In this document: positions 2,757 to 38,860 of the stretch, piece after piece
How the letters are laid out: each line of letters begins with the position of its first letter
Position numbering within the stretch: the first letter of the stretch is position 1
DNA from: Candidatus Heimdallarchaeota archaeon
Lineage (GTDB): Archaea > Asgardarchaeota > Heimdallarchaeia > Heimdallarchaeales > Heimdallarchaeaceae
Length of the DNA: 64,000 nt
Reading direction: 5' to 3'
NCBI GenBank assembly: GCA_016840095.1
Contig: JAEOSZ010000055.1
Location: 1-64,000 of the forward strand
Program-made: the position numbers and the translations under genes
Notes under the pieces: generated by a model
The model's input: only the letters and a program-made list of their open reading frames with translations
What the model was told of the DNA's origin: nothing
Database searches by the model: none

Positions 2757-3311
2757 CTAAATCTTTCTTTTTTTGCTTGCTAGATATGCTAGACTTAAAA
2801 CTGCTATAATCGGAAGTATAATCCCTAAACTTGCTTCTTTAACTCTTACAAAGCCAGGTATCCAGAGGAAACTATAATCTGGGTCTTCTCCTTGTGTATT
2901 ATTCCCTTTGAAGCTATAGAGAGTAGCAACAGCAAATTGTTCAAATGGTATACCTGACAGATTATACGATAAAGCAGTATTACTACTTCCACCTTCTACA
3001 TTGATATCTGAGAGAGTTGTATTATCTGTGAGAAAGACTGATTCTCCTGAGATTGAAATGTCTACTACAATATCATAGAAACCCACAATAACTCCTTCTA
3101 AAGTTCCAAAAGTAACAGCTTCCAATTCTAAACTAAGATCGAATAGAGAACCGTTTACATAAGTGTATTTGAAATTAGCTGTTACCTTATATACTGTTCC
3201 ATCAGTTTCAGTTTCTGCGATCGATATGGCAGAAGTTTGTGTTGGAATAAGTAAAATGATGAAAGTAAGGCAAAGAATACTAATGTGTTTTTTCTTCATG
3301 AAATGCACCAA
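2757..3311 (-). CDS. Secreted surface protein with signal peptide and C-terminal TM anchor
   Basis: N-terminal hydrophobic signal ending TSAISIAE; C-terminal LGIILPIIAVLSLAYLASKKRKI. Confidence 0.65.
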   Translation of the reverse strand: MVHFMKKKHISILCLTFIILLIPTQTSAISIAETETDGTVYKVTANFKYTYVNGSLFDLSLELEAVTFGTLEGVIVGFYDIVVDISISGESVFLTDNTTLSDINVEGGSSNTALSYNLSGIPFEQFAVATLYSFKGNNTQGEDPDYSFLWIPGFVRVKEASLGIILPIIAVLSLAYLASKKRKI

Positions 3312-3450
3312 TTAACAATAAAAAGAGAAGTTAAAAAGTTTCTGTAGACTTAAAAACTATATCTAAAACCATTTCAGAATAACACTTAATAGAGAAAAAG
3401 TGCATGAATCATTATTTGATATTTAAAAATCAAAAAATGAGGTTACAAAC

Positions 3451-4020
3451 ATGTCAGTAAAAGTTTTTGTTGGAAGTGTACTTGTATCTATTTTGATTTT
3501 AGCTCCTGCTACTTATTTCCTCATGCCAGTTCTTTATCCAAGTATGATTGATGATACAGAAGGCGTCTTGCTTCAATCTGAGTATTTCCTATTTGATTCA
3601 GAAGCTAGAATCAGTGATAATGATTTAACATACCAGATGATGAATGGAACTTCCTGTCTTATAACTACACAAGGAAATTCAAGATTATCAGTTCTGTTCA
3701 CAGCTACAGGATATATGACTCTTAATGGTGCATGGACTGAAAAATCTGAATACTTGATAGATCTAGTAGTTGATTCTTCTGCCAATAGAGCAATTCTTCT
3801 TGGGTTCTATGACTATGGTCCAGTTCATGGTGCGTCTAGAATATTATTTTTTGACATTACTATCAATTTAGTTACAGATGTACTAATAGCTGGAACACAT
3901 AACATAACAGTTTTCTGGAGATCATTAATTGACGCAGTAGGAATAAATACATTTTATATCTATGATCCTAGCAATAACTATCTTCGATCATTATGGATAC
4001 AAGAAACATCTCAGAATTGA
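3451..4020 (+). CDS. N-terminally membrane-anchored extracellular protein, paralog of 1220-1774
   Basis: FVGSVLVSILILAPATYFLMPVLYPSM and ...RSLWIQETSQN match 1220-1774. Confidence 0.7.
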   Translation: MSVKVFVGSVLVSILILAPATYFLMPVLYPSMIDDTEGVLLQSEYFLFDSEARISDNDLTYQMMNGTSCLITTQGNSRLSVLFTATGYMTLNGAWTEKSEYLIDLVVDSSANRAILLGFYDYGPVHGASRILFFDITINLVTDVLIAGTHNITVFWRSLIDAVGINTFYIYDPSNNYLRSLWIQETSQN

Positions 4021-16409: not shown

Positions 16410-17726
16410 TTATTCAAGCTTAATCCAGTCTTTTTGGAGTTCTAACATTTCATCTAAAAATTGATTTATTAAATGCTTTCTTGGAAAGTTTGAATCAGCT
16501 TGAAGTGCTTGTACAGCGTAATCTCTTGAATTATTGAGTATGGCTTTAACAACAAGATCTTGTACATTAGCTTCTTCTCTAAGCAGATCAACTAGAGGTT
16601 CTGGATACTCTCCAAGGGGGATACCTCTTAAACCTGATTTATTAACAATTGCTGGACATTCTATTATAAGATCTTCAGGTAAATTAGTAATTATTCCTTT
16701 ATTTGGTAAATTAACTGATATCTCTTGATGGTTACTATCTGAAATTATACCTTCTATAATAGGAACTGCACGTTCATGATCAGGTTTCACTAGTTTGTAG
16801 CTCTTGTTTCTCCTAATCAATCTTTTAATTCTTCTCCAATTGAAGTTGATATACATTCTATAAATATTGAAGAAATTCTTTACACCTCTCATATTAGAGA
16901 CTTCTCTAGCCCAACCTATATACTCACCATAATGAGAATCATTAGTATAGGGAAGATAACCAAAGTGTTCTAGAATATAAAGAGTTAAGCCAACAGGATG
17001 TAAGAGTCTTGATGGTATACTCCATCTCCATCTTCTTAGGAACTTAACACCTCTTTGATGAATCTTAGGAATTAAATCTTCATTTGTGTCTTTGTGCCTT
17101 GCTTTAATAATTGCTCCCATATGATTTAATCCTCCACACCATAAATCTAGTTTTTCAAAAGGAACTTTCAGTATTTTTGGAAGAAGATGTTCAGCTAAAG
17201 CTATCTCATGACAAAGACCAATAATTTTGAGATTGGGGAATTTTCTATTCACTGCTAAAAGGATTCTATGCATAGGATTTGAATAATTAATGAATGTAGC
17301 ATCAGGACAGATTTCGTTGATATCTTCACAGATATCTAGAATTGGAGGTACTACTCTAAGTGAATGAAACATCCCTCCAGGTCCTCCATTTTCTCCAAAC
17401 ACTTGAGGACTATGATATTTCCATGGAATTTTCTTATCTAAATCCCACCAATAAAACCTTGGACCTACTTCTATTGAGTTCACAATGAAGTTTGCATCTT
17501 TCAAAGCTTCTTTGCGATCTGTAGTAGCTTCTACAGTGAAATTTAGATTATTTCGATCAATTTTAGCTTGACAAGCTTCTTGTGCATATTCTAGGTTTAT
17601 AGCGTTGATATCATGTAAACTTACTGTTGCACCTTCTAATACTTTCGAAGCAAAAATACTTCCGCAGGTACCTAATCCGAATTGTAAGCTTCCAGCACCA
17701 ATGATTACAATCTTTGTAGATGCCAT
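16410..17726 (-). CDS. Glycoside hydrolase family 4 (NAD-dependent) protein
   Basis: MASTKIVIIGAGSLQFG Rossmann start; GGPGGMFHSLRVVPPILDI, FINYSNPMHRI, GLCHEI, GGLNHMGAI; start at 17726 rather than track 17942. Confidence 0.88.
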   Translation of the reverse strand: MASTKIVIIGAGSLQFGLGTCGSIFASKVLEGATVSLHDINAINLEYAQEACQAKIDRNNLNFTVEATTDRKEALKDANFIVNSIEVGPRFYWWDLDKKIPWKYHSPQVFGENGGPGGMFHSLRVVPPILDICEDINEICPDATFINYSNPMHRILLAVNRKFPNLKIIGLCHEIALAEHLLPKILKVPFEKLDLWCGGLNHMGAIIKARHKDTNEDLIPKIHQRGVKFLRRWRWSIPSRLLHPVGLTLYILEHFGYLPYTNDSHYGEYIGWAREVSNMRGVKNFFNIYRMYINFNWRRIKRLIRRNKSYKLVKPDHERAVPIIEGIISDSNHQEISVNLPNKGIITNLPEDLIIECPAIVNKSGLRGIPLGEYPEPLVDLLREEANVQDLVVKAILNNSRDYAVQALQADSNFPRKHLINQFLDEMLELQKDWIKLE

Positions 17727-17850: not shown

Positions 17851-19821
17851 ATGCTTATGGTAAGAGCAAGATTTGTAAAGCCGATTCTAGTTTTACTCTT
17901 TACTACTTTGTTTCTCTTAAGTGTAGTAAATACTAGTATCAATGTTAATTCAAAGGAACCTATTGCTAATCTTGTAATTAAAACCAGTGGAGGAGGAGTA
18001 AGACCTAATTACTGTCTTTACATAGCTCAATATTTACGAGAGGTTGGAATTGAAGTAGAAATTAAAACTGAAGAGTGGGTTGTCTTTCTAGGACAAATAC
18101 TATTTACGCATAATTATGATTTAGCTGTAGTAGGTTGGTCACTCAATCTTTTCTCTCCTGATATGAGAGGGGTTTACACTGAAACCAGTCCTGAGAATAT
18201 TTGTGGCATTACTAACGATATTCCTTACATCAATCAGAGTGAAGAGATGTTACAAGAAGGAATTACTATTCTTGAACTAACTGAAAGGCAACAGCTTTAC
18301 TTTGACTGGCAAAAATTGATAATGGATCGAATTCTTCCTATTCTACCTCTTTATACTACAATGAATTATTGGGCTCTGTGGTCAAATACTAAGGGTTATG
18401 ATTCCAGATGGGGATTATACGATAATTTACCTTATATGAGCTGGGAAGATTACCATTTTGGTCAAAAATCTTTAGATGAACTTAATCTTGATGAAGGATA
18501 TTGGTTATCATTAAATCCTCTTAATGCTCCTGATGCAGCAAGTTATAGATTTATTAGTTTGATAATGGACAAATTAATAATTTGGAGTCCGGATAATCAA
18601 CCTCTAAGATCAGGACCTATCTACGATTGGGAGAAGTTTGATGATTTTCATTATAAATTCTTTTTACGAGAAAATATGTTTTGGAATCCTTCTTATAATG
18701 TTTCACTAAGAAATGAAAATTCTCCTGAACTTTCATCTATACCTTCACCAGAACTAATGTTTGGATTAAAAAATGATGAATTTAGTGATGGAACTAATCA
18801 AAATATCAAAGCTAAAGACGCAGTTTTTAGTATATTAGCTCTAGCAAATGAAGAAGTAAGTGATTTTTCCTATTATTTCAATTGGATTTCAGATTTATAT
18901 GTGGATGAGGAGGATGAGTATGCTTTTCATCTAATTATTGATGGTAATCCGGAAACTCCTGAGAAAGAAGTTTATGTTGACTTTTGGTATGATTTATCTT
19001 TAATCAGTTTAATTCCTGAATTCTTTCTGAATTCTACAGACATAACTATTACTCAGACTTCTGGGGGAGTAGAATGTAGTGGTTTTTATCCAGGGATTCT
19101 TTCAACCCCTCAATGGAAAGCCTTTGATCATACTCCATTTGGTAGTGGAATGTATCAGCTTGATTACTATTTCAAAAATGTATTAACTGTCATGACGAGA
19201 AGTCCATATTGGTTTGGTGTAGGTAGATTAAACAACCAAGAAAATATGGTGCCTTTTGTGGAAACACTCAACCTTAGAGTTATTCCTGATTCTACTTCAA
19301 GCATTACAGAATTCAGAGCAGGAAAACTTGATCTTGTTTGGCTCACAGGTTTTACATCTGAAAGAAGGCAGATGGAAATTGATGACAGAATGACTGTTTA
19401 TAGTACTCTTTCAAGTGGCTACACGTTTATGATTTTCAATCTTGCTAGACCCTTTATTGGCGGAACAAATAATTATGAATGGTTGACATCAGAAGGAAAA
19501 GAAGTATATACTAAAGGAGTAGCAATTAGGAAAGCAATTAGTTATTCAATTGATAGAGAAGAAATGAATGATGTGCTACATAATGGAGAGTACATCATAT
19601 GTCACAGTCCAATTGTTCCAGGATTGACTTATTATTATTATAACGATGTCATTAAATATAACAAAGATTTGAAAAAAGCTGAGGAATGGCTTATAGCAGC
19701 AGGATATGACATAGAGGTAGATGGAACTACATTTGAATTATTCACCACAATAATAGGTATATCATCAATTCTAGTTATTCAAGGATATATACAAAGAAGA
19801 AAGAAGATTACTAAGAGCTGA
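17851..19821 (+). CDS. ABC-type family-5 (DppA/OppA-like) solute-binding protein, circularly permuted domain order, C-terminal TM anchor
   Basis: N-terminal YLREVGIEVEIKTEEWVVF...YDLAVVGWS...ERQQLYFDWQKLIMDRILPILPLY is normally C-terminal; then LNPLN...YDWEKFDDFHYKFFLRENMFW...AKDAVFS (normally N-terminal); ends RKAISYSIDREEM...KKAEEWLIAAGY then TM. Confidence 0.85.
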   Translation: MLMVRARFVKPILVLLFTTLFLLSVVNTSINVNSKEPIANLVIKTSGGGVRPNYCLYIAQYLREVGIEVEIKTEEWVVFLGQILFTHNYDLAVVGWSLNLFSPDMRGVYTETSPENICGITNDIPYINQSEEMLQEGITILELTERQQLYFDWQKLIMDRILPILPLYTTMNYWALWSNTKGYDSRWGLYDNLPYMSWEDYHFGQKSLDELNLDEGYWLSLNPLNAPDAASYRFISLIMDKLIIWSPDNQPLRSGPIYDWEKFDDFHYKFFLRENMFWNPSYNVSLRNENSPELSSIPSPELMFGLKNDEFSDGTNQNIKAKDAVFSILALANEEVSDFSYYFNWISDLYVDEEDEYAFHLIIDGNPETPEKEVYVDFWYDLSLISLIPEFFLNSTDITITQTSGGVECSGFYPGILSTPQWKAFDHTPFGSGMYQLDYYFKNVLTVMTRSPYWFGVGRLNNQENMVPFVETLNLRVIPDSTSSITEFRAGKLDLVWLTGFTSERRQMEIDDRMTVYSTLSSGYTFMIFNLARPFIGGTNNYEWLTSEGKEVYTKGVAIRKAISYSIDREEMNDVLHNGEYIICHSPIVPGLTYYYYNDVIKYNKDLKKAEEWLIAAGYDIEVDGTTFELFTTIIGISSILVIQGYIQRRKKITKS

Positions 19822-33906: not shown

Positions 33907-35518
33907 GAAAACAGTACTTACTATTAGTGTAGTGATTCTTATATTCCTATCTACATTTATTCCTATTTATATTGTTTTCAAACCCAAAGATCAACGAATC
34001 AAGCATGAGCCAATAATAATTTGGAAAGATGACGATTTCAAGAATTTTGAATTCTCAGGGGATGGAAGCCAAGAGAATCCATATCTTATAGAAAATCTTG
34101 AGATTATTACTGATTTCAAGTATAGTATCTATATCAGAAACACATTCAAACATTTTGTCATTAAGAATTGTTATCTAGCCTCAAATGAATATGGTATCTA
34201 TATAGATAACATAGCTGATGGAACAGCTGTAATTACAGAAAATATCTGTGAAAACAATGAAGTTGGAATATGGATATCAAATTCAGAGAATTTAATTGTT
34301 TTCAATAACAGCTGCTCTAATAATGGTGAAACCTCAGGAGGAGGAATAATTGTAACAGATTCTTCTTTCTGTAACATATCGAATAATTATTGTTATAAAA
34401 ATAATTTCTATGGCATTAAAGTAGAAAACACAGAAGCTTGCAATATAATCAATAATACTTGTATTAAAAACGAAAATCAGATTCAAGGTGCTGGAATTTA
34501 TGTTTTTCAATCTTCCCTAACGCTGATAGAGAATAATAATTGTAGTTCAAACAGAAGAAATGGAATTCAAGTAACTGCATCAAGTTCAACCAATATCTCA
34601 AGCAATCTTTGCGAAGATAATTATCACATTGGAATTTTAGCAACAGGTTGTCCTAATTCAATCATTTCAAATAATTTTTGCTTAAGAAATAGGAATTGGT
34701 ATAAGAGAGAGAGTCATGGGATTGTACTTCAATATTCTTCACACTGTAATATAACGAACAATTTAGTTGACTCCAATATAGGTAATGGAATCTTTCTAGA
34801 AAGTGATTCTAATAGCTTTATCTCAGATAATTTAATCTATAATCACACTGGATATTACGAAGCTCTCTATTCTCCAAATAGTCTTTTCTTTGGTTACTCA
34901 ATATATTGTTACAGCTCGGAAAATATCTCTGTTCTTCGAAATGAAGGTATAAGTAATTATGGAGGGTGTTGGATTGAAAGTTCCCATAATATGAATATTT
35001 CCTCAAACCTGTTTTCATATAGCTCAAGTTATGCAATAGAAATTCATGAAGGTTCAAATTGTACAATCAAGAAGAATGTTTTGAGTGAAAACGATATAGG
35101 TATTGGTTTTAGTAATACTGAGTTGTCTATTTTATCAAATAATTTGGTCCAAAACTCTGATGGATATGGTCTCATATTAAATGGATCATCAATCAATAAT
35201 TCTATTCATCATAATAGCTTCATTGGAAATAATCTTGCAGGAACTAGTCAAGGTTATGACGAAGGAAATGATAATTTATGGTATGACAATGTAACTAAAG
35301 AGGGGAATTTCTGGAGTGATAGAATCAGTGGGAATTATTCTATTGATGGACCTTCCAGTTCTGAGGATTTATACTGTCTAGAAGAAGATCCTTTCAACTA
35401 TTTACTAAATACATCTATTAACAGAAGTATTGCATTTACACAATCTTCAATCTTTAATGATCTTACTAATACAATCAAACTAAAAGCTGTTAGATGGATA
35501 AAAAAAGAAGAATTATAG
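33893..35518 (+). CDS. Parallel beta-helix (NosD-like) surface protein
   Basis: N-terminal TM; GSQENPYLIENLEI; repeated NNxxxxNxxGIxV rungs; EGNFWSDRISGNYSIDGPSSSEDLY; GTG start overlaps the upstream gene by 14 nt. Confidence 0.85.
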   Translation: MKINRKTVLTISVVILIFLSTFIPIYIVFKPKDQRIKHEPIIIWKDDDFKNFEFSGDGSQENPYLIENLEIITDFKYSIYIRNTFKHFVIKNCYLASNEYGIYIDNIADGTAVITENICENNEVGIWISNSENLIVFNNSCSNNGETSGGGIIVTDSSFCNISNNYCYKNNFYGIKVENTEACNIINNTCIKNENQIQGAGIYVFQSSLTLIENNNCSSNRRNGIQVTASSSTNISSNLCEDNYHIGILATGCPNSIISNNFCLRNRNWYKRESHGIVLQYSSHCNITNNLVDSNIGNGIFLESDSNSFISDNLIYNHTGYYEALYSPNSLFFGYSIYCYSSENISVLRNEGISNYGGCWIESSHNMNISSNLFSYSSSYAIEIHEGSNCTIKKNVLSENDIGIGFSNTELSILSNNLVQNSDGYGLILNGSSINNSIHHNSFIGNNLAGTSQGYDEGNDNLWYDNVTKEGNFWSDRISGNYSIDGPSSSEDLYCLEEDPFNYLLNTSINRSIAFTQSSIFNDLTNTIKLKAVRWIKKEEL

Positions 35519-37780
35519 ATTTCTGTCTACAATTCTACGTTTTCTAATTCTTCCAAGAACTAAAGCAATTAGTAACAATGAGCTAAAGATAGCTGTTGAC
35601 TTCTGGAATGAAGTCTTCAGGATAGGATTTTCAGTTCCTACAATGAAAGAATAGTTTTGACTGTTGTAAGTTAAACCATTCGAGTTCTGTAATTGCATGA
35701 AAAATTTGACAGAATCTCCTTCATCAAAGTCCTTTCCTATGTTATATTCATACGTATTTTCTGCTTCATTTGTCATTGTTTCATTTGACCACAGAGCATC
35801 ATTAACTTGGTAATTCAACATTGAGGAAACGATATTTTGATTTTTGTATTCAGCTGTTACAATTATATCCTTACCTAGTTTATCATGATTTTTTGCTGTA
35901 ACTGTAATATCTGGAAAATAATCCTTTTTTGGTAACCAATCATTAGCTAGACATAGATCTCTAGGATACTTTACTACATCATCACAGTAATAGTAGGAAG
36001 TGAAAGGATACATCGTACTATTAGCTAAAAGATTTTCTCCGTAATAAAGATCATCATTTATTTCTACACTATCAATGGCATAGCTGATTGCTTTTCTAAG
36101 AGAACAAGCAAGTGTATAATCTTTCTTTCCTTCTTCTTGATTAAAGACATAGTTTGAAGCTCCTCCAATAAATGGTCTTCTAAGATTAAAACCTACAAAA
36201 TGAATATTGTCTCCTAGTACCTTTACAACATTGTATCGCGGATCTTCCTCCATAACTCTTCTATCTTCAGGGAATTTGTTAAGAACAGCGAAATCCAAAC
36301 TACCGTTTTTAAATAATGCAAATTCGATAGATTCATCTGAAATAGCATGGACATTCAAAGTTTGCACAAAAGGTTCGAGATCTGTTGCTCCGTCAATTGC
36401 CCCAACTCCAAACCAGTATGGACTTCTCTGAAAAACTGTAATGTTCCCAGGATCATGATAGTCAAGCATAAACTTGCCACAACTAAATGCAGAAGTTAGA
36501 TAGATTAACCATTGAGGTGTATCTAACATTTCTGGGTATAATCCAACTGTTTGAACTCCTCCTAGTGTTTCTGAAACCATCGGATTTGTAGAATTCAGAA
36601 AGAATTCAGGCATAATTCTTTCAGTAAGTCTTCTCCAAACCTCGGCATTAGTTTCTAATTCTGGGGTTTCAGGATTATTATCTATATGAATGTGAAAAGC
36701 TAATTCATCACTAGGGTCTACATAAATATCAGAGATAAATTGCATAAAACCAGGAATATAACTTATCAGTGGATTCCCTATTGCTAGTAAAGTAAAGACA
36801 GCATCTTTTGCTGTCACTTTCTGATTAGTACCATTACTAAATTCACCATTCTTTAAACCAAGCATCAATTCTCCTTCAGGAATTGATGATAACGGTGGAG
36901 AAAGATAATCTCTACTAGTACAATCATAGCTTGGATTCCAATAAACATTATCTCGAATAAAAAACTTAAAGTGATTATCATCTATCTTTATCCAATCATT
37001 AATCAATCCTGTTTTAACTTGTATTTGATCAGGACTCCACTGAATCATTGATTCATGTAGTAATTCTAGAATGAACTTGTTGTCACCAGAAAGAAGATGA
37101 TAGTATAAAGGATTCAAAAAATCCCAGTAAGCTGCTATATTGAATTCACTTGTTGATGTTTGACCTTCGTGTAACCCATCAAAACTCATGTAAGGTAGGC
37201 TATCTAGAAATCCCCATCTTTCATTGAATCCCTGAGTATTTGACCATGTTGTCAAATAGGAATAGGCGGCAAACAATGGCACAATTGGAATAATCTTGTC
37301 ATTCATTAACTTCTGCCAATCATAGTAAAGCTGCTGTCTTTCTTCTGGATCCATTATCTTTATTCCTTCTAGAAGCATTTCTTCATTTATATCCCCGTAT
37401 GGAATATCGTTTCTTATTCCAAAGTAATTCGCTAAACCATTTCCTGAGAATACATGATAGAAATCAGGAGTTTCCCCCAATCCAGTTATACTAGCTATAG
37501 CTAAATCAAAATCATGTGTATATCTTATAGTATGATCAAAAACTGACCATTCCTCTATAACTATTGTAACATCTATTCCTATGTCTTCAAGATATTCTGA
37601 TACATAGAGAGCTACATCAGGTCTAATACCTCCTCCATTTGTTTTCAAAACTAGATTTAGCCATATTACACTATCTGCTTTCGCAACATCTTGAGCATTA
37701 ACTGTTGATGAAAAAATAACAACTGATAACAGAAATGAAATGATTATTTGTTTTCTCCTATTTGAAGCCATAATAGTCAA
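35513..37780 (-). CDS. ABC-type family-5 solute-binding protein, circularly permuted, with C-terminal Ig-like segment and TM anchor
   Basis: Paralog of 17851-19821: YLEDIGIDVTIVIEEWSVF...ERQQLYYDWQKLMNDKIIPIVPLF at the N-terminus; SLRKAISYAIDSVEIN near the C-terminus; then beta-rich extension and TM/RKRR. Confidence 0.85.
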   Translation of the reverse strand: MTIMASNRRKQIIISFLLSVVIFSSTVNAQDVAKADSVIWLNLVLKTNGGGIRPDVALYVSEYLEDIGIDVTIVIEEWSVFDHTIRYTHDFDLAIASITGLGETPDFYHVFSGNGLANYFGIRNDIPYGDINEEMLLEGIKIMDPEERQQLYYDWQKLMNDKIIPIVPLFAAYSYLTTWSNTQGFNERWGFLDSLPYMSFDGLHEGQTSTSEFNIAAYWDFLNPLYYHLLSGDNKFILELLHESMIQWSPDQIQVKTGLINDWIKIDDNHFKFFIRDNVYWNPSYDCTSRDYLSPPLSSIPEGELMLGLKNGEFSNGTNQKVTAKDAVFTLLAIGNPLISYIPGFMQFISDIYVDPSDELAFHIHIDNNPETPELETNAEVWRRLTERIMPEFFLNSTNPMVSETLGGVQTVGLYPEMLDTPQWLIYLTSAFSCGKFMLDYHDPGNITVFQRSPYWFGVGAIDGATDLEPFVQTLNVHAISDESIEFALFKNGSLDFAVLNKFPEDRRVMEEDPRYNVVKVLGDNIHFVGFNLRRPFIGGASNYVFNQEEGKKDYTLACSLRKAISYAIDSVEINDDLYYGENLLANSTMYPFTSYYYCDDVVKYPRDLCLANDWLPKKDYFPDITVTAKNHDKLGKDIIVTAEYKNQNIVSSMLNYQVNDALWSNETMTNEAENTYEYNIGKDFDEGDSVKFFMQLQNSNGLTYNSQNYSFIVGTENPILKTSFQKSTAIFSSLLLIALVLGRIRKRRIVDRNL

Positions 37781-38089
37781 CTTAAATCCTACTTGTGTTT
37801 GAAAAATATAAAAATCTTCTGCATACTTAATGAAATTAGATATTTTGGAAAAATATCTTAGAATTTCAGAGAGCAGTTAGGAGTTTTTCAAGCAATTATG
37901 TAATGCATTTAATCTGTTTTCCAGATTTACAGAACATGATAAATTCTAGATAAAAGAGTTTGAAGGCTTTTCAAATTTAAGTTTCACATAGTTGCATTTT
38001 GGTTTTACTATTTAATTTCACGTATATGATTTATGCAATGAATTTCTCCTTCATTCAATGGAATCCTTGTGGTTCCAAAGGTGAAAAAA

Positions 38090-38860
38090 ATGAACAAAAA
38101 ACTAGTAATTGGTTTGGTTTTAATCAGCTTAGTTGGTATTACTATGATACCTGTAGGCTATATTGCTTCTGCAGGTGACTGTACTGAAGTTGATTTTGTT
38201 ATATGGCTCGAGACTCCTGAAAAACAAGTTGTAATTGATGAAATGATCACTAAAACTGAAAGCTTAGGATTAACAGTAAATCCTATTTATGTAACTTTTG
38301 AAGAATGGATTGGATATGCTCATGGTTCAAAAGATTATGATATGCTTTATGGCCCCTATATGACTCTCCCTAAAAATCTAAATATTCTTGATCTTGCTCA
38401 ATTAAGCTTGATACTGAACTATTTTGCTTTGACTCATACAGATAAAAAACTAATGACATGTACAGACATTATGTGGAGTATGTTTTGGGAAGCAATAGAA
38501 GATCCTACTTTGATGATGGATGAAGAATTTATAGATAAAATGGTAGATTTGTTCCACATAACTGAAAAACGATATTACATTAAGCAATACTTCTCTGTCT
38601 TTGTTCAATTTGAAACCCCTAGTTCTGATGAATGGGGACCAGTTCCTTCAATGAGAACAGAAGCATTAACCTTCAATTGCTTAAAAGGTCGAGTTTTCAA
38701 AGATGCAGACTTAAGAAAAGAATGGAATTCAATCATAGATAGAACAGTCTTTCTAGATTATCATGCACTTTATACTCCATATCCAGTTTATGAAGTTCAT
38801 CACATATTCCAATATTCTAACTTCCATGATATAACATTACCAAATAACTACTTGTATTGA
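38090..38860 (+). CDS. Secreted protein resembling only the relocated N-terminal module of the permuted solute-binding proteins
   Basis: Signal peptide; TESLGLTVNPIYVTFEEWIGYAHGSKDYDMLYG and MDEEFIDKMVDLFHITEKRYYIKQYFSVFVQFETPS parallel the paralog N-terminal pattern; no TM anchor. Confidence 0.5.
   Translation: MNKKLVIGLVLISLVGITMIPVGYIASAGDCTEVDFVIWLETPEKQVVIDEMITKTESLGLTVNPIYVTFEEWIGYAHGSKDYDMLYGPYMTLPKNLNILDLAQLSLILNYFALTHTDKKLMTCTDIMWSMFWEAIEDPTLMMDEEFIDKMVDLFHITEKRYYIKQYFSVFVQFETPSSDEWGPVPSMRTEALTFNCLKGRVFKDADLRKEWNSIIDRTVFLDYHALYTPYPVYEVHHIFQYSNFHDITLPNNYLY

What the first reader, a model, noticed from the sequence alone, without database searches (positions are those of the whole stretch)
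17851..19821. Circularly permuted family-5 solute-binding protein, membrane-anchored
Seen: the protein starts with NLVIKTSGGGVRPNYCLYIAQYLREVGIEVEIKTEEWVVF...YDLAVVGWSLNLFSPDM...ERQQLYFDWQKLIMDRILPILPLYTTMNYWALWSNTKGY. This corresponds to the C-terminal segment of DppA/OppA-type proteins (E. coli DppA: ...ADWAKVGVQAKIVTYEWGEY...VMMGWTGDNGDPDNF...RVELYKQAQVVMHDQAPALII...VKGY). Only afterwards comes the canonical N-terminal segment (LNPLNAPD...DWEKFDDFHYKFFLRENMFW...AKDAVFS). The chain then ends at the canonical hinge RKAISYSIDREEM...KKAEEWLIAAGY-dG and a TM helix. The break lies exactly between 'KAxxLLxxAGY' and the following C-terminal beta-strand. A fold-preserving permutation tethered at the new C-terminus is, to my knowledge, not a described arrangement for this family.
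Basis: partly seen in the sequence, partly recalled or inferred. Interest (0 to 1): 0.87.

Follow-up and report, generated by a model that had tools for sequence, protein, structure and literature searches.

The report
Circularly permuted archaeal nutrient-binding proteins
In Heimdall-type Asgard archaea the surface proteins that should catch peptides or similar nutrients for import are built in rotated order, back half first and front half second, and this has happened in the same protein family at several different cut points, which is not reported in any paper we could search.

Summary
Window 17851-19821 (+) encodes a 656-residue exported, membrane-anchored family-5 solute-binding protein (SBP_bac_5, DppA/OppA type). 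Its C-terminal segment (residues 38-185) precedes its N-terminal and middle segments (214-622). The cut falls just after the KAxxWLxxAGY motif and nothing is lost. AlphaFold2 gives one confident fold (pLDDT 91); a collinear match to DppA reaches only TM 0.41/0.52, against 0.82 for a canonical control. It is not an assembly chimera: the same genome has 14 permuted and 1 canonical family-5 genes, and all 24 genomes of the family, including the closed Heimdallarchaeum endolithica genome, carry the permuted form. Both halves are inherited together (r = 0.90), so this is permutation, not fusion of unrelated halves. In sister lineages permuted genes flank DppB/DppC-type permeases. Best reading: a tethered binding protein for Dpp/Opp-type ABC importers whose chain ends, hence tether point, have moved. 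The only precedent found is in another binding-protein class (Treponema Tp0684).

The parts
17851..19821 (+). circularly permuted family-5 solute-binding protein (656 aa), subject of the finding
17851..17955 (+). signal-like hydrophobic N-terminus (residues 1-35)
   Evidence: hydropathy maximum at residues 8-30; helix 6-29 in the model
17962..18405 (+). old C-terminal segment now placed first (residues 38-185), equivalent to AppA about 359-504
   Evidence: strand/helix order identical to the C-terminal part of the canonical control
18406..18489 (+). new linker joining old C-terminus to old N-terminus (residues 186-213); LPYMS..DxxHxGQ conserved in group A
   Evidence: alignments A1 and A4
18490..19716 (+). 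old N-terminal and middle segments now placed second (residues 214-622), ending in KKAEEWLIAAGYD
   Evidence: PF00496 profile 28-289; AppA 212-350
19717..19818 (+). short low-confidence stalk and C-terminal transmembrane helix (residues 623-656), the membrane anchor at the new C-terminus
   Evidence: helix 629-655 and low pLDDT 625-633; hydropathy
35513..37780 (-). second permuted family-5 protein in the window (755 aa): signal sequence, C-part, N-part, extra domain of about 100 aa, transmembrane helix
   Evidence: full-length match to the permuted model
38069..38860 (+). possible single-lobe remnant (263 aa) with segments in permuted order; very weak
   Evidence: 3.3 and 0.5 bits only; no Pfam match

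Best explanation
The gene encodes a circularly permuted, membrane-tethered solute-binding protein of the DppA/OppA (family 5, cluster C) class. The two-lobed fold is kept, but the chain now begins at the beta-strand after the KAxxWLxxAGY helix. It runs to the old C-terminus, crosses a new linker into the old N-terminus, and ends at AGY, followed by a short stalk and a transmembrane helix. It most likely works as an ordinary binding protein: exported, anchored on the outer face of the membrane, closing on a peptide or similar solute and handing it to a DppBC/OppBC-type permease driven by DppDF-type ATPases. Several such proteins probably share one or two permeases encoded elsewhere. The permutation moves the tether from the canonical C-terminus to a loop in the other lobe. 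Shown here: the order, completeness, predicted fold, anchor, spread, and linkage to permeases in sister lineages. Inferred: binding, transport, which permease is used, and the advantage of moving the tether.
For: Order and completeness. Fold: pLDDT 91.3 and pTM 0.85 for a monomer; top Foldseek matches are family-5 binding proteins, with collinear TM of at most 0.41/0.52 against 0.82 (1dpe) to 0.91 (5u4o) for a canonical control; secondary-structure elements correspond one-to-one after rotation. Spread: 14 of 15 family-5 genes in this genome, 24/24 genomes of the family, closed genome CP084167. Both halves inherited together: r = 0.90, 0/500 permutations. Function: permuted genes flank DppB and DppC genes in L137 and L139. 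The closed genome G028 has only permuted-type family-5 matches but two sets of Opp/Dpp permease and ATPase genes, at least one (L135) without a binding-protein gene. The window's own genome has a further cassette without a binding protein (C143, L130).
Against: In the window's genome and in G028 no permuted gene lies next to an Opp-type permease, so the partner is inferred. Some copies are broken: the L070 gene is split over two frames. No ligand or ligand pocket was tested.
Confidence: 0.82

Rival explanations
1. The permuted proteins are surface receptors or scavengers that no longer deliver to an ABC permease; they sense or concentrate solutes, and the permutation was tolerated because permease docking was lost.
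For: Most permuted genes in the window's family are not linked to permeases, and their number (14 here) far exceeds the Opp/Dpp permease pairs. Some carry extra domains before the anchor. Single-lobe relatives exist (L029 4842-5873, L189).
Against: Permuted genes flank DppB/DppC genes in f3 genomes. The closed genome has permease and ATPase genes but no canonical family-5 binding protein. The fold is fully conserved, including the lobe that contacts the permease.
Confidence: 0.15
2. Not a permutation of one gene but a fusion of a C-terminal segment from one binding protein to the N-terminal part of an unrelated one.
For: For group A, the finding's own group, neither half has a single clear canonical source (20-28% identity to many).
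Against: Within permuted proteins the two halves diverge in step (r = 0.90, the same as in canonical proteins), and both halves of group B, of L151 and of L160 point to the same canonical relatives.
Confidence: 0.05
3. The protein works as a domain-swapped oligomer in which the front block completes the lobe of a neighbouring chain, so the monomer is not a true fold-preserving permutation.
For: Swapped segments can in principle be exchanged between chains; no oligomer prediction was run.
Against: The monomer model is confident with the front block well placed (pLDDT around or above 90 over 41-200, pTM 0.85), and the linker, about 26 residues, looks long enough.
Confidence: 0.06
4. Assembly chimera, frameshift or pseudogene.
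For: The window's genome is a draft (165 contigs, contamination estimate 7.8%).
Against: Same order in 24/24 family genomes, in a closed chromosome, and twice in this window; open frames of 590-760 aa kept across species at 40-50% identity.
Confidence: 0.01

Closest known systems
Family-5 / cluster C solute-binding proteins (SBP_bac_5, PF00496: DppA, OppA, AppA, NikA)
   Same: Homologous over both segments, above the Pfam cut-off; same secondary-structure elements; exported; membrane anchor also seen in canonical Asgard members (L001, L100-L108).
   Different: Segment order rotated: [325-475][2-327] of a 475-column model instead of [1-475]. All 27 bacterial hits examined, and the canonical Asgard proteins, have the usual order.
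Tp0684 / TpMglB-2 of Treponema pallidum (PMC4990184), proposed 'cluster Bc' binding proteins
   Same: Natural circular permutation of a tethered ABC binding protein with function kept (D-glucose binding shown); the authors suggested the topology might be an adaptation to membrane tethering.
   Different: A different binding-protein class (MglB-like, cluster B). There the last 70-100 residues replace the usual N-terminal strands; here the cut lies before the C-terminal 150 residues, in an unrelated class and in archaea.
Canonical family-5 proteins of sister Heimdall-class lineages (L100-L108, L112, L116, L125)
   Same: Close relatives of permuted group B: 28-40% identity over the N part and 32-52% over the C part; same signal sequence, stalk and anchor layout.
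   Different: Usual N-to-C order; they nest inside the permuted clade in the tree.

Membership tests
SBP_bac_5 (PF00496) family-5 / cluster C binding proteins | Sequence homology above the curated cut-off | tested here: met
   131.8 bits against 32.4; all 49 solved chains matched are family-5 proteins
SBP_bac_5 (PF00496) family-5 / cluster C binding proteins | Family-5 two-lobed fold | tested here: met
   Confident model; nearest solved structures by Foldseek are family-5 proteins; element-by-element match to the canonical control after rotation. No permutation-aware superposition was possible.
SBP_bac_5 (PF00496) family-5 / cluster C binding proteins | Collinear order of segments, as in described members | tested here: not met
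   Swapped order in all tests; collinear TM at most 0.52 against 0.82-0.91 for the control. Hence filed as a permuted variant, not an ordinary member.
SBP_bac_5 (PF00496) family-5 / cluster C binding proteins | Export signal and retention at the cell surface | tested here: met
   N-terminal hydrophobic helix 6-29 and C-terminal helix 629-655; predicted only
SBP_bac_5 (PF00496) family-5 / cluster C binding proteins | Genetic partnership with DppBCDF-type ABC transporter genes | tested here: inconclusive
   Present for permuted relatives in f3 genomes (L137, L139); absent around the permuted genes of the window's genome
SBP_bac_5 (PF00496) family-5 / cluster C binding proteins | Binding of a solute | not testable with these tools
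   Needs purified protein
TpMglB-2-like circularly permuted cluster B proteins (cluster Bc) | Homology to MglB-type sugar-binding proteins | tested here: not met
   PF00496 is the only Pfam family matched; no MglB-type chain among PDB sequence matches

The most novel reading that the evidence does not exclude
Asgard archaea have repeatedly re-cut the same binding-protein fold at two or three different loops (columns about 185, 255 and 325 of a 475-column model). Order at one of these loops has changed more than once, probably including a return to the canonical order. Each time the C-terminal stalk and anchor stay at the end of the chain, so circular permutation has acted as a recurrent way of changing where and in what orientation the binding protein is tethered to the membrane.
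Probability: 0.4. Interest if true: 0.86.

Novelty: new variant of a known kind. Interest (0 to 1): 0.76.

Why it matters
Natural circular permutations of this size are rare, and the one precedent found among ABC binding proteins is in another class. Here one protein family shows two well-supported cut points (a third from a single protein), and close relatives in both orders. That makes two open questions directly testable: how natural permutations arise and revert (tandem arrays of these genes are present), and whether the position of a membrane tether on a binding protein matters for docking to its permease. It also matters for annotation: Pfam-style tools report these proteins as partial or odd hits, and they are nearly the whole family-5 repertoire of Heimdall-type archaea, close relatives of the archaeal ancestor of eukaryotes.

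Tried and rejected
Assembly chimera: rejected by recurrence in other genomes and in a closed genome. Fusion of unrelated halves: rejected by matched divergence of both halves. A single origin of the cut-1 form excluding all canonical proteins: rejected by the AU test (p = 7e-39), but the direction of the changes and the number of gains were not resolved. Whether the finding's own group A and group B (10-20% identical) share one permutation event stayed open. I looked for a fused tandem (N-C-N-C) intermediate: the long open frames reported in G057 and G052 turned out to be separate neighbouring ORFs. Gene-neighbour clustering for group A gave one recurring secreted neighbour without a Pfam family, plus a Ras-family GTPase; not interpretable. 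The window gene 38069-38860 as a single-lobe relative: only about 3 bits, not claimed. Other archaeal phyla could not be reached with the genome search; 151 genomes of the phylum of locus L095 (a Chloroflexi bacterium) served as an outside control, and no listed match spanned the junction.

Full report
OBSERVATION. The ORF at window 17851-19821 (+) encodes 656 residues. Pfam-A finds one family, SBP_bac_5 (PF00496), 131.8 bits against a cut-off of 32.4, in two stretches. A whole-genome scan places profile 291-354 at 17971-18162 and profile 28-290 at 18778-19743 on the same strand and frame, i.e. in swapped order. Against solved structures, residues 42-184 match AppA (1xoc) 363-503 and residues 468-624 match AppA 212-350. 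The order, the new linker (186-213, LPYMS..DxxHxGQ in the group) and the new C-terminal anchor are direct readings of the sequence.

NOT AN ARTEFACT. The window's genome (3.44 Mb, 165 contigs) has 15 family-5 genes. Reading their frames shows 14 permuted and one canonical (L001, in a full dpp-type cluster on C35). A second permuted gene lies in this window (35513-37780, -). The permuted genes form two groups: A (8 proteins, including this one) and B (6 proteins, three of them in tandem on C56). A scan of one genome per species (85,462 species) with the group-A alignment gave about 50 permuted relatives. All are annotated as Heimdallarchaeota or Asgard group, and they include the closed chromosome of Candidatus Heimdallarchaeum endolithica (CP084167.1: L035, L043, L070). 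Below them the list drops to canonical bacterial proteins. In a phylum-wide search with a permuted model, matches running contiguously through the junction occur in all 24 genomes of the window's family and all 9 of family f7 in the same class. As an outside control, 151 genomes of the phylum of locus L095 (a Chloroflexi bacterium) were searched: 147 have matches, and none of the listed ones crosses the junction.

ORDER TEST. HMMs of the C part and N part gave C-then-N for all Heimdall relatives carrying both parts (apart from canonical L001) and N-then-C for all bacterial hits carrying both. An HMM built from canonical proteins, iterated to an order-independent model of 475 columns, gave the same and revealed three classes. 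Cut 1, as in this finding, is [about 325-475][2-about 328]. Cut 2 is [about 185-470][2-about 187]: 15 proteins in G052 (f5, single-contig genome), G069 (f11), G207 (f28) and G054 (f6). Cut 3 is [255-475][2-254]: one protein, L160 in G054. For cut 1 the front block starts at column 325 (median) and the back block ends at 327, with a linker of 26 residues, so nothing is lost. Group codes f1-f28 are the tool's; only f1 can be named, through CP084167.

FOLD. AlphaFold2 with 52 permuted sequences gave pLDDT 91.3 and pTM 0.85 for the monomer; only the signal, the stalk (625-633) and the ends are poor. A canonical control (Arcobacter, L073) gave pLDDT 88 and pTM 0.83. The element strings correspond after rotation. 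Permuted E39-46 H51-63 E67-74 H76-86 E91-97 H106-109 H127-137 H143-161 E164-177 equals canonical E346-352 H356-370 E375-381 H383-390 E398-404 H412-415 H433-443 H448-465 E468-481. Permuted H555-566, H569-577 and H607-616, the last elements before the anchor, equal canonical H278-287, H290-298 and H327-336. Foldseek finds family-5 proteins for both models. The collinear TM for the permuted model is 0.41/0.52 at best (1dpe, E 7.5e-13), against 0.82/0.82 for 1dpe and 0.86/0.91 for 5u4o with the control. That is what a collinear aligner should give for a permutation; a permutation-aware superposition could not be run.

PERMUTATION, NOT FUSION. Pairwise identities in the N part and C part rise and fall together among cut-1 proteins (r = 0.90, 820 pairs, 0 of 500 permutations as high), as in canonical proteins (r = 0.90). 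Both halves of group B, of L151 and of L160 point to the same canonical relatives. For group A the nearest canonical proteins are distant (20-28%), so its direct ancestor was not identified.

HISTORY. On a tree of 87 proteins aligned without regard to order, the four labels need 5 changes (shuffled mean 35). Cut 2 is one clade (SH-aLRT 100). L160 (cut 3) is sister to a canonical protein (99). L141, a cut-1 protein of f5, lies among canonical Asgard proteins (95). A clade of 12 canonical proteins from families f2-f4 nests among cut-1 proteins. Forcing the main cut-1 proteins to exclude those canonical ones costs 156 log-likelihood units (AU p = 7e-39). So cut-1 order changed at least twice inside that group: either several gains at the same loop, or gain and return. 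The tree used the quick search, some rows are long, and gain against loss is not resolved. Head-to-tail arrays of permuted genes (L055, L136, L138, L177) are the kind of material from which duplication and trimming could make either order; this is inference.

FUNCTION. In G016 (f3), three cut-1 genes flank a DppB-like and a DppC-like permease gene on C7; in G014 (f3), two do so on C95. A cut-2 gene in G052 lies about 1.2 kb downstream of a DppB-like permease on the same strand, and L141 lies about 1.1 kb from a permease pair. In the closed genome G028 = CP084167, none of the 13 or so family-5 genes has a canonical-type match end, yet there are two sets of permease pairs and DppDF-type ATPases. 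The first of them (L135) has no binding-protein gene, and no family-5 gene is listed within about 190 kb of either. In the window's genome the permuted genes are not next to Opp-type permeases, and cassette C143 lacks a binding-protein gene. The simplest reading is that permuted proteins supply these permeases, several to one. Binding and transport are inferred, not shown. The divergent neighbour is a GH4 glycosidase; whether the solute is a sugar or a peptide is unknown.

TETHER HYPOTHESIS. Cut-1 and cut-2 proteins and the canonical Asgard ones inspected end in a stalk (Thr/Pro-rich in several) and a transmembrane helix. From established knowledge of OppA, the canonical C-terminus is in domain I and the cut-1 loop is in domain III (not computed here). 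Permutation therefore moves the anchor to the other lobe. The authors of the one precedent found, Tp0684 of Treponema pallidum, suggested that its permuted topology might be an adaptation to tethering (PMC4990184). That protein is of another class.

NOVELTY. Open-access literature searches found no permuted family-5 protein and no Asgard report. No solved family-5 chain was found with permuted order by sequence. I file it as a new variant of a known kind, with unusual breadth.

Noticed in passing
L170, L171, L172, L174, L175, L186 (G052); L179, L180, L188 (G207); L181, L182 (G069); L183 (G054): A second natural permutation of the same family, cut at about column 185 of 475, monophyletic, in four Asgard lineages.
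   Followed up: partly
L160 (G054:C401): A single 720-aa protein with a third cut point (about column 255), sister to canonical L152.
   Followed up: partly
L029:4842-5873; L189:1945-2928 and 2913-3938: Single-lobe proteins that keep only the two segments of one lobe, in permuted order (model 326-461 then 256-323), as if the middle had been deleted.
   Followed up: no
window 35513-37780 (-), residues about 635-735; also L013: An extra domain of about 100 residues (weak CBM56-like match, E 0.006, below cut-off) lies between the end of the binding fold and the anchor.
   Followed up: no
window 16413-17723 (-): Family-4 glycosidase gene divergent from the permuted gene, about 130 bp away.
   Followed up: no
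L130 (G000:C143); L135 (G028): Opp/Dpp-type permease and ATPase cassettes with no binding-protein gene; the C143 region also holds a Ras-like GTPase gene (by its sequence) and two coiled-coil-like ORFs.
   Followed up: partly
L022:3723-4952 and similar in 9 other loci: A secreted protein of about 410 aa without a Pfam family recurs directly upstream of an orthologous permuted gene.
   Followed up: no
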